From: Inediibacterium massiliense
Lineage (GTDB): Bacteria; Bacillota; Clostridia; Peptostreptococcales; Thermotaleaceae
Length of the DNA: 64,000 bases
Assembly: GCF_001282725.1 (NCBI RefSeq)
Contig: NZ_LN876587.1
Coordinates: forward strand, 739,695-803,694
Reading direction: 5' to 3'
Part shown: one piece after another, positions 47,282-49,002 of the stretch
How positions within the stretch are numbered: the stretch's first letter is position 1
How the letters are laid out: each line of letters begins with the position of its first letter
Translations under genes and position numbers: made by a program
The notes under the pieces: generated by a model
What the model saw: the letters and a program-made list of their open reading frames with translations, nothing else
What the model was told of the DNA's origin: nothing
Databases searched by the model: none

Positions 47282-47426
47282 AAAGACTTGTGGTAATAAG
47301 TCAAGATAGAAAAAGATAGGTTTTGATTAAACTTACAATAATATTTTCTAAAAAAGTCAGCACTTAATAAACCTAAGGTAAATTAGGATTAAAACGAAAA
47401 GATTGCGCATCGAAGATTATTCGATA

Positions 47427-48653
47427 TTATACACTCCTTTCTGGTGCATAAAGTTGGTGATTGCGTAGCAGCACATCCACCATGCGCACAAATTTTCTTG
47501 CAGTAAGGACGAGAGCTCTTTTATGTTGATGCTTAGGAACTTCATGATATTTCTTGAGATAGTATTCTCTATAAACAGGTTCATTACGCATAAGTGAATT
47601 GGCAGCTTCAATCAAGTAATAGCGAAGGTAATGATTCCCTGTTTTAGTCATTGTAGTTCTTTCAGATTCAAAATTACCAGATTGTTTTCGCTTCCAGTAA
47701 AGACCTGCATACTTGGCAATTTTGGCTTCATTTTCGAAGCGTTGAATTTGACCAATTTCGGCTATTATGCCAGCAGCATAAACTGGTCCAATGCCTGGAA
47801 CACTAAGCAATGATTTGGATTCAGGTAAAATTTCAAATAATTGCTGAATTGCTTTATCAAGTTCTTTGATCTGTTTTTTTATGGTTTTAATCATCATAGC
47901 ATATGAAGCCAAAATAACATCGACTGAATTTTGCATGACTTTTCCTAGTCGATAAGAGTCTCTAATGGCTTTTGAAAGTGATTTCGCAAGCTTTTCAGGA
48001 TTGCTAAATCGACCACGGCCTTTTTCTTGTAAAATAGCAGCCAAATCCTCTAAAGACATATTGGCGATGTCTTCAAGAGTCATAGAGTCGGTTACTAAGT
48101 CCATCATGGTTGTACCAAAGACAGATGTATCAATTTCTTTAGTGAGGGTATTACACTTGTAATAAATATTTTCTAAAAAATGTTGCTTCATTTCAGTCAA
48201 TTGGCCAATGAGCTGGTAACGTGATCTAGTTAATCTTTGTAAAGCCATATATTGTTCTTCTTTAATCAAGGAAGTATTGAAACGATCAAAGCGAAGAAAG
48301 TCAGCAATACGATAAGCATCTATTTTATCGGTTTTATCTTCTTCAAATAGGCCTTTAAACCGATGTATAGCCTTAGGATTCATAACAACAACTTCGACTC
48401 CTAAAGACTTAAGCTCACAGTCTTCTGCTAGAAAAGTTGAAGGGTGAAAGCTGTAAATAGAAGTTGCTTCCATACCGATTATAATACGATCATACTGAAT
48501 TAGATCAGTGAAATGGCTAATATGTTCTTTGATTTTACTAGCACCAACAACATTATTGGGTAGAGAAACTTCTAGTAAAATTTGATCTTCACTGGTGAGA
48601 AAACAAGTATCAAGTTTTTCAGAACTAACATCAATACCAACAAATAATTTCAT
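47427..48653 (-). CDS. IS110-family DEDD recombinase/transposase
   Basis: 408 residues, full length. N-terminal RuvC-like domain: KLFVGIDVSSEKLDTCFL, GMEATSIYSF, and DKTDKIDAYRIADFLR near residue 110. C-terminal Tnp domain: LLSVPGIGPVYAAGIIAEIG near 283, KIAKYAGLYWKRKQSG with the likely nucleophilic Ser near 322, and TKTGNHYLRYYLIEAA. IS110 recombinases work with a structured RNA from the element's noncoding end that pairs with both donor and target. AGAAAGGAGGT precedes the start. The gene appears intact, so the element may be active. Confidence 0.95.
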   Translation of the reverse strand: MKLFVGIDVSSEKLDTCFLTSEDQILLEVSLPNNVVGASKIKEHISHFTDLIQYDRIIIGMEATSIYSFHPSTFLAEDCELKSLGVEVVVMNPKAIHRFKGLFEEDKTDKIDAYRIADFLRFDRFNTSLIKEEQYMALQRLTRSRYQLIGQLTEMKQHFLENIYYKCNTLTKEIDTSVFGTTMMDLVTDSMTLEDIANMSLEDLAAILQEKGRGRFSNPEKLAKSLSKAIRDSYRLGKVMQNSVDVILASYAMMIKTIKKQIKELDKAIQQLFEILPESKSLLSVPGIGPVYAAGIIAEIGQIQRFENEAKIAKYAGLYWKRKQSGNFESERTTMTKTGNHYLRYYLIEAANSLMRNEPVYREYYLKKYHEVPKHQHKRALVLTARKFVRMVDVLLRNHQLYAPERSV

Positions 48654-48683
48654 GGATAGGACCTCCTTTCTATGAATTTGGAA

Positions 48684-48953
48684 CGGCTTGGATACTGAAA
48701 CCTATCCCTAGTTACCAACCGGATGGCAACAACCTCGCGTATGAGTATTCAATACTTGTCCACCATAAGCTGCCCGAAGCTACTAACATTCGGTATGATA
48801 GGCAAGAGATACAGCTTGTGAGTTTGCAGTACACCTGTTGGCTGGGAGACAGTCTTTAAATGCAGTCTTGCTGCAGGAGAGAACAGCCTTAATCCAGATA
48901 GATCCTTATTCCATACTTCTATTATCTAGGAATAGGACTCAATATCCAAGTCG
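48684..48953 (-). ncRNA. Candidate IS110 bridge RNA (5' noncoding end of the element)
   Basis: About 270 nt upstream of the recombinase gene. Its two ends are inverted repeats: 48684-48711 and 48926-48953 match in 23 of 28 positions, and three of the five mismatches become G-U pairs in RNA, so a closing stem of up to 26 pairs is possible. Inside are smaller hairpins such as TGCAG/CTGCA and AGTAT/ATACT (recombinase orientation). Long structured 5' ends encode the guide (bridge/seek) RNA in the IS110 group. Loop pairing with target and donor was not resolved by eye. Confidence 0.55.
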
Positions 48954-49002
48954 ATAGATGAAAATTTTTAAATTTAAATATATTATACGAGGAGAGTAGA
49001 GT

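What the first reader, a model, noticed from the sequence alone, without database searches (positions are those of the whole stretch)
48684..48953. IS110 5' noncoding end closed by a 28-base terminal stem: candidate bridge RNA
The ends of this noncoding region (48684-48711 and 48926-48953) are inverted repeats with 23 of 28 matches; as RNA three of the five differences are G-U pairs. Smaller hairpins lie inside. IS110 recombinases use an RNA from the noncoding end to choose donor and target, so a full-length closing stem suggests a compact guide RNA whose layout may differ from described ones.
Basis: partly seen in the sequence, partly recalled or inferred. Interest (0 to 1): 0.68.

Follow-up and report, generated by a model that had tools for sequence, protein, structure and literature searches.

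The report
Bridge RNA with a closing stem
This stretch of a jumping gene very probably encodes the guide RNA that steers the element into the ribosome-binding sites of other genes, and the whole guide is clamped by a long, evolutionarily maintained double-stranded stem that the best-studied guide of this kind (IS621) is not described as having.

Summary
The two 28-base arms match at 23 of 28 positions, with three G-U pairs and two mismatches in the minus-strand RNA; none of 1000 shuffles reached 23. The region is the left end of an IS110-group element with eight near-identical annotated copies, plus one broken by an assembly gap. All main parts of a canonical bridge RNA are present: target loop, donor loop, handshake bases and a promoter rebuilt at the circle junction. 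Across 11 distinct relatives both target guides match their own insertion sites better than shuffled partners (P 0.00015 and 0.0006). The donor guide changes together with the element end.

The closing stem is a separate, conserved RNA helix. Over 14 relatives (50-92% protein identity), 95% of cells pair and 15 of 25 pairs show compensatory double changes. It encloses the standard modules rather than replacing them. It is not part of the described IS621 layout and was not detected in E. coli ISEc20.

The target is the Shine-Dalgarno sequence: 22 of 26 copies sit just upstream of an open reading frame. IS900 is already known to target such signals. What the stem does is inferred; RNase III processing is the favoured guess.

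The parts
47286..48991 (-). Complete IS110-group element, 1706 bp including one core dinucleotide (CT on the element strand, AG at 48990-48991); the other core copy is at 47284-47285. It sits between pstB and phoU.
   Evidence: Alignment of eight copies with different flanks; empty site in a same-genus genome
47427..48653 (-). IS110 recombinase, 408 aa (DEDD_Tnp_IS110 plus Transposase_20)
   Evidence: Pfam PF01548 E 2.7e-28 and PF02371 E 1.8e-24
48654..48991 (-). Left end (338 nt including core): leader, bridge RNA, recombinase ribosome-binding site
   Evidence: Copy alignment and boundary search
48982..48987 (-). -10 box TATAAT at the left-end terminus
   Evidence: Junction TTGACW-17-TATAAT-like in all 19 element copies of the clade with both ends
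47299..47304 (-). -35 box TTGACT in the right end, 17 nt from the -10 once the ends join in the circle
48926..48950 (-). 5' arm of the closing stem
   Evidence: 94.9% of cells pair over 14 sequences, 15 of 25 pairs with compensatory change
48687..48711 (-). 3' arm of the closing stem
   Evidence: 0 of 500 shuffles reach the observed values, and slid registers fall to 28-50% paired
48896..48927 (-). Region in the place of the 5' stem-loop (AGATA...TATCT), just inside the closing stem
   Evidence: Position and inspection only; no consensus helix was predicted here
48842..48897 (-). Target-binding loop: lower stem (CTGG with CCAG, GGC with TGT), both target guides, upper hairpin GCAG/CTGC
   Evidence: Consensus fold; coordinates
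48875..48884 (-). Left target guide GTTCTCTCCT; matches target ...CTCTC|CT
   Evidence: 6-8 of 9 matches in the seven copies with both ends; permutation P = 0.00015 over 11 elements
48854..48861 (-). Right target guide ATTTAAAG; complementary to CTTTAAAT-like right target
   Evidence: permutation P = 0.0006 over 11 elements
48852..48853 (-). Handshake bases of the target loop (AC); A where the donor base left of the core is T, T where it is A
   Evidence: Alignment A1 read against right ends
48813..48822 (-). Left donor guide CTCACAAGCT; matches right end CACAAG(T)CT
   Evidence: Co-varies: CACAAG/CACAAG, CGCAGG/CGCAGG, CATTAG/CATTAG
48734..48742 (-). Right donor guide ATACGCGAG; pairs discontinuously with left-end CTCGTAT (9 nt against 7, as in IS621)
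   Evidence: Sequence; pattern described in PMC11208160
48659..48670 (-). Recombinase Shine-Dalgarno region GAAAGGAGGTCC, strongly conserved
   Evidence: Alignment of relatives

Best explanation
The region is the bridge-RNA gene of an IS110-group element. On excision the two ends join and build a promoter (TTGACT-17-TATAAT) that transcribes the left end and then the recombinase. The RNA carries a target loop whose two guides read CTCTC-CT-TTTA and so place the element in the Shine-Dalgarno sequence (TAAAGGAGAG on the gene strand) a few bases before a start codon. It also carries a donor loop that reads the joined element ends. The recombinase exchanges strands at the CT core. The gene keeps AGGAG and its start codon, and there is no target duplication. 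The 25-bp outer stem is an additional RNA helix that holds both ends of the guide together. I think its most likely job is to mark and release the guide from the recombinase message, for example by RNase III cutting, and to protect it. Shown by comparison: the modules, guide-target and guide-donor agreement, the stem's existence as a conserved RNA helix, and the target site. Inferred: transcription, protein binding and the stem's role. The stated confidence is for the bridge-RNA identity with a conserved enclosing helix; for RNase III release as the stem's role I would give about 0.4.
For: Eight near-identical annotated copies share the ends and differ in flanks. The joined window flanks read GGTTAAAAAGGAGAG..ATG, and the same-genus empty site reads GGTTAAAAAGGAGG..ATG between pstB and phoU, without duplication. 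Left and right guides match their own flanks better than permuted ones, P = 0.00015 and 0.0006 over 11 distinct elements. L129 (TTTTAG with CTAAAA), L132 (GGATAG with CTATCC), L131 (TTTAAG with CTTAAA) and L120 (TTTCCTCCT, 9 of 9) show natural reprogramming. The donor guide has three states that track the right end, and the handshake base switches A/T with the donor base. The junction promoter is present in all 19 copies with both ends. The closing stem has 15 compensated pairs, 0 of 500 shuffles. 22 of 26 insertions lie 7-14 nt before an ORF of at least 60 codons; random positions give 14% within a 3-24 nt window and 1.6% at 12-14 nt.
Against: No RNA, protein-binding or transposition data exist here. 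Folding energy alone does not favour the RNA strand. Rfam holds no model that matches. L132 matches its target on the right but hardly on the left (2 of 9). The relatives are phylogenetically linked, so permutation and pair counts overstate the number of independent changes. Nothing here tests RNase III cutting.
Confidence: 0.93

Rival explanations
1. The inverted repeat is a regulatory hairpin of the recombinase message (attenuator or fold-back inhibitor as in IS10) and not part of the guide RNA.
For: The 3' arm ends 16 nt before the recombinase Shine-Dalgarno region, and guide and message would share one transcript.
Against: The Shine-Dalgarno sequence lies outside the stem. Both arms lie downstream of the junction promoter, so the stem could not distinguish the element's own transcript from incoming ones. 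The stem encloses all guide modules at nearly constant length (263-279 nt). It could still have this role in addition.
Confidence: 0.12
2. The repeat acts as DNA: a recombinase-binding inverted repeat like the subterminal repeats of IS1111 elements.
For: IS1111 elements carry 7-17 bp subterminal inverted repeats (PMC11208160).
Against: Both arms are inside one end, about 40 and 280 nt from the terminus, rather than flanking the donor core. Several positions are kept as G-U pairs (columns 14/279 in 12 of 14, 25/268 in 9 of 14), which are mismatches in a DNA repeat.
Confidence: 0.03
3. The true guide starts from an internal promoter in the 5' arm (TTGGAT-17-GATAAT), so the closing stem is not in the working RNA.
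For: The window has TTGGAT and GATAAT 17 nt apart within 48921-48949, and GATAAT is conserved in many relatives.
Against: The TTGGAT box is lost in L133 and L120 while pairing is kept by changes on both sides. The junction promoter is invariant. The simple scan finds only a weak site there.
Confidence: 0.1

Closest known systems
IS621 bridge RNA (IS110 group; PMC11208160, PMC11208158)
   Same: Guide in the left end, transcription from the joined ends, 5' stem-loop then target loop then donor loop, CT core, discontinuous 9-against-7 right donor guide, handshake bases.
   Different: No enclosing stem is described for the 177-nt IS621 RNA in the text read. Here a 25-bp stem closes about 265 nt and the left end is 338 nt. 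IS621 has its own different target; this element targets Shine-Dalgarno sites.
ISEc21 seekRNA (IS110 family; PMC11187229)
   Same: Upstream noncoding region, promoter created by the joined ends, guide copurifies with the transposase and sets the target; proposed to be co-transcribed with the transposase and processed.
   Different: Different target. A closing stem did not come up in the passages of that paper that I searched.
IS900 of Mycobacterium avium subsp. paratuberculosis
   Same: Target motif CATGNNNNNNTCTCCTT (PMC8141618), essentially the same as here; Doran et al. 1997, cited there, is titled 'IS900 targets translation initiation signals'.
   Different: Different phylum. The guide RNA of IS900 was not examined here.
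Enterococcus and Lactobacillus IS110 elements (L119, L120, L153)
   Same: 53-62% protein identity; the same closing stem with different sequence (about 30 positions in L153); CCTCCT guide.
   Different: Donor end CATTAGACT in L120 with matching donor guide.

Membership tests
IS110 family recombinase | N-terminal DEDD domain and C-terminal Transposase_20 domain | tested here: met
   PF01548 and PF02371, both far above cut-off
IS110 group (versus IS1111) | Long left end carrying the guide, short right end | tested here: met
   Left end 338 nt, right end about 144 nt
Bridge RNA | Two loops complementary to both strands of target and of donor, including the core | tested here: met
Bridge RNA | Guide-target and guide-donor covariation across relatives | tested here: met
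   Permutation P 0.00015 and 0.0006 for the target; three donor states by inspection
Bridge RNA | Promoter reconstituted across the joined ends | tested here: met
   TTGACW-17-TATAAT-like in 19 of 19
Bridge RNA | Conserved 5' stem-loop | tested here: inconclusive
   A short AGATA/TATCT pairing is possible at 48896-48927, but no consensus helix was predicted
Bridge RNA | RNA is made and binds the recombinase; recombination depends on it | not testable with these tools
   No expression or biochemical data
Bridge RNA | Match to a published covariance model | not tested
   The published models are not on hand; Rfam 15 gave no match
Closing stem as an RNA helix | Compensatory changes above shuffled and slid controls | tested here: met
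   In more distant relatives (about 40%) single-sequence stems are strong in some (L072, L078, L108, L116), but the joint alignment is weak

The most novel reading that the evidence does not exclude
A large clade of Bacillota IS110 elements makes bridge RNAs as closed, double-strand-clamped molecules that RNase III frees from the recombinase message. Because their target guide is an anti-Shine-Dalgarno sequence (CTCCT, in places identical to 8 nt of the 16S rRNA tail as I recall it), the same RNA may also pair with the recombinase's own ribosome-binding site and limit its translation.
Probability: 0.2. Interest if true: 0.72.

Novelty: new variant of a known kind. Interest (0 to 1): 0.52.

Why it matters
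Bridge recombinases are being developed as programmable DNA-rearrangement tools, and the described IS621 guide has no closing stem. A covarying 25-bp clamp around both loops suggests a built-in way to produce and stabilise the guide, which can be tested and possibly borrowed. The clade also offers a natural series of reprogrammed guides with their insertion sites, and it links RNA-guided transposition to translation-start signals.

Tried and rejected
Rfam: no match at the locus even at E 1 except a chance hit to IS009 inside pstB. Folding energy: not decisive, and the plus strand scores slightly better. The 33-bp extra left-end match at C13:127005 looked like a solo end but borders an N inside the recombinase gene, so it is a ninth copy across an assembly gap. 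A HEARO RNA next to one relative (L133) looked like a guide inside the element but lies just outside its right end. The viral-contig scan found no relatives. A joint alignment of about 50 distant left ends gave only weak support for the outer helix (62.6% against 57.2% at the best slide in the far set), so I do not claim the long stem for the whole group. IS116 showed no significant long stem.

Full report
What was checked. The arms at 48684-48711 and 48926-48953 match at 23 of 28 positions; as minus-strand RNA they form 23 Watson-Crick and 3 G-U pairs with 2 mismatches. In 1000 dinucleotide-preserving shuffles of the 332-nt region the best 28-base inverted repeat never exceeded 21 matches. 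The fold keeps the stem with mean pair probability above 0.9, although overall folding energy is not exceptional for either strand.

The element. The minus-strand gene at 47427-48653 is an IS110 recombinase. Eight near-identical annotated copies lie in the genome, one cut short at its right end, with a ninth interrupted by an assembly gap. Copies with different flanks set the ends: the element spans 47286-48991 with a CT core (AG on the plus strand). Joining the window flanks gives GGTTAAAAAGGAGAGTAGAGTATG. The same-genus genome has GGTTAAAAAGGAGGATGTATAGATG between pstB and phoU. Insertion was therefore exact and without duplication.

The target is a Shine-Dalgarno site. On the gene strand the site reads AAAGGAG. 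In 26 copies from this and related elements, 22 have an open frame of at least 60 codons starting 7-14 nt from the core, nearly always with a start codon at 13-14. Random positions give 13.7% for a start at 3-24 nt and 1.6% at 12-14 nt; only 13 of 64 AAGGAG sites in the window are followed by such a frame. The gene keeps AGGAG and its start codon. IS900 has the same motif, CATGNNNNNNTCTCCTT (PMC8141618), so this kind of target is known in the family.

The bridge RNA. The consensus fold of 14 left ends shows a target loop with lower stem CTGG/CCAG and upper hairpin GCAG/CTGC. Its 5' side GTTCTCTCCT matches the left target and its 3' side ATTTAAAG is complementary to the right target. Over 11 distinct elements, own-site matches exceed permuted ones for both sides (P 0.00015 and 0.0006). 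The elements are related, so these values are optimistic, but single cases are clear: L129, L131, L132 (right side) and L120 have changed guides and changed sites that agree. The donor guide CTCACAAGCT reads the right end CACAAG(T)CT; in L133-L138 both are CGCAGG and in L120 both are CATTAG. The base after the right target guide is A where the donor base before the core is T and T where it is A, as expected for the handshake bases of IS621 (PMC11208158). The right donor guide ATACGCGAG pairs with CTCGTAT by skipping two bases, as described for IS621 (PMC11208160). The joined ends form TTGACW-17-TATAAT-like promoters in all 19 copies with both ends in hand.

The closing stem. Over 14 relatives the 25-pair stem is 94.9% paired, 15 pairs have compensatory changes on both sides, all measures beat 500 of 500 shuffles, and sliding by one to three columns drops pairing to 28-50%. 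It encloses the 5' stem-loop position, target loop and donor loop and ends 16 nt before the recombinase ribosome-binding region. The IS621 papers describe 5' stem-loop, target loop and donor loop. I found no significant long enclosing stem in E. coli ISEc20 or in IS116, while L. crispatus L153 has one of about 30 positions with unrelated sequence, and distant elements such as L072, L078, L108 and L116 have strong ones. Support for the most distant set as a whole is weak. I could not see the published diverse bridge-RNA figures or supplements, so someone may already have drawn such a stem.

What it probably does. That the region is a working bridge RNA is inferred from comparison but strongly. 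The stem's role is a guess: a long regular helix around a guide that shares a transcript with the recombinase is a natural RNase III substrate and would release the guide. The seekRNA authors also argue that guide and message are co-transcribed and then processed, though they suggest the transposase as the processing agent (PMC11187229). A role in recombinase translation is possible, because the CTCCT guide can pair with the recombinase's own AGGAG, but nothing here tests it.

Noticed in passing
L133 356-597 (+) and its left-end flank: This relative is inserted between a HEARO (omega) RNA and the gene it accompanies; the downstream frame begins MLVFVQNKHGEALMPCKPRK, which looks like IscB. The insertion splits a guide RNA from its presumed nuclease gene.
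   Followed up: partly
L130, L131, L132 and L137, L138: left ends of 547-563 nt: These left ends are about 200 nt longer, with an extra G+C-rich, apparently structured stretch before the closing stem (GGGAGTCCAGAGGGTGCAGGGGCCCC...; GGTAGGCTCATTAGCCGCACAG...). No Rfam family matches.
   Followed up: partly
L026 about position 1006 (G000 C13:127005): A ninth copy is collapsed at an N inside the recombinase gene, an assembly artefact; it too lies directly before a start codon.
   Followed up: yes
window 48659-48670: The recombinase's own Shine-Dalgarno region GAAAGGAGGTCC resembles the element's target, so self-insertion or pairing with the left target guide is conceivable.
   Followed up: no
window 47286-48991: The element separates pstB from phoU in the phosphate-transport operon; phoU keeps AGGAG and its ATG, but its transcription must cross or start in the element.
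   Followed up: no
L024: One copy in the same genome lacks its right end but keeps the whole left end and guide.
   Followed up: no
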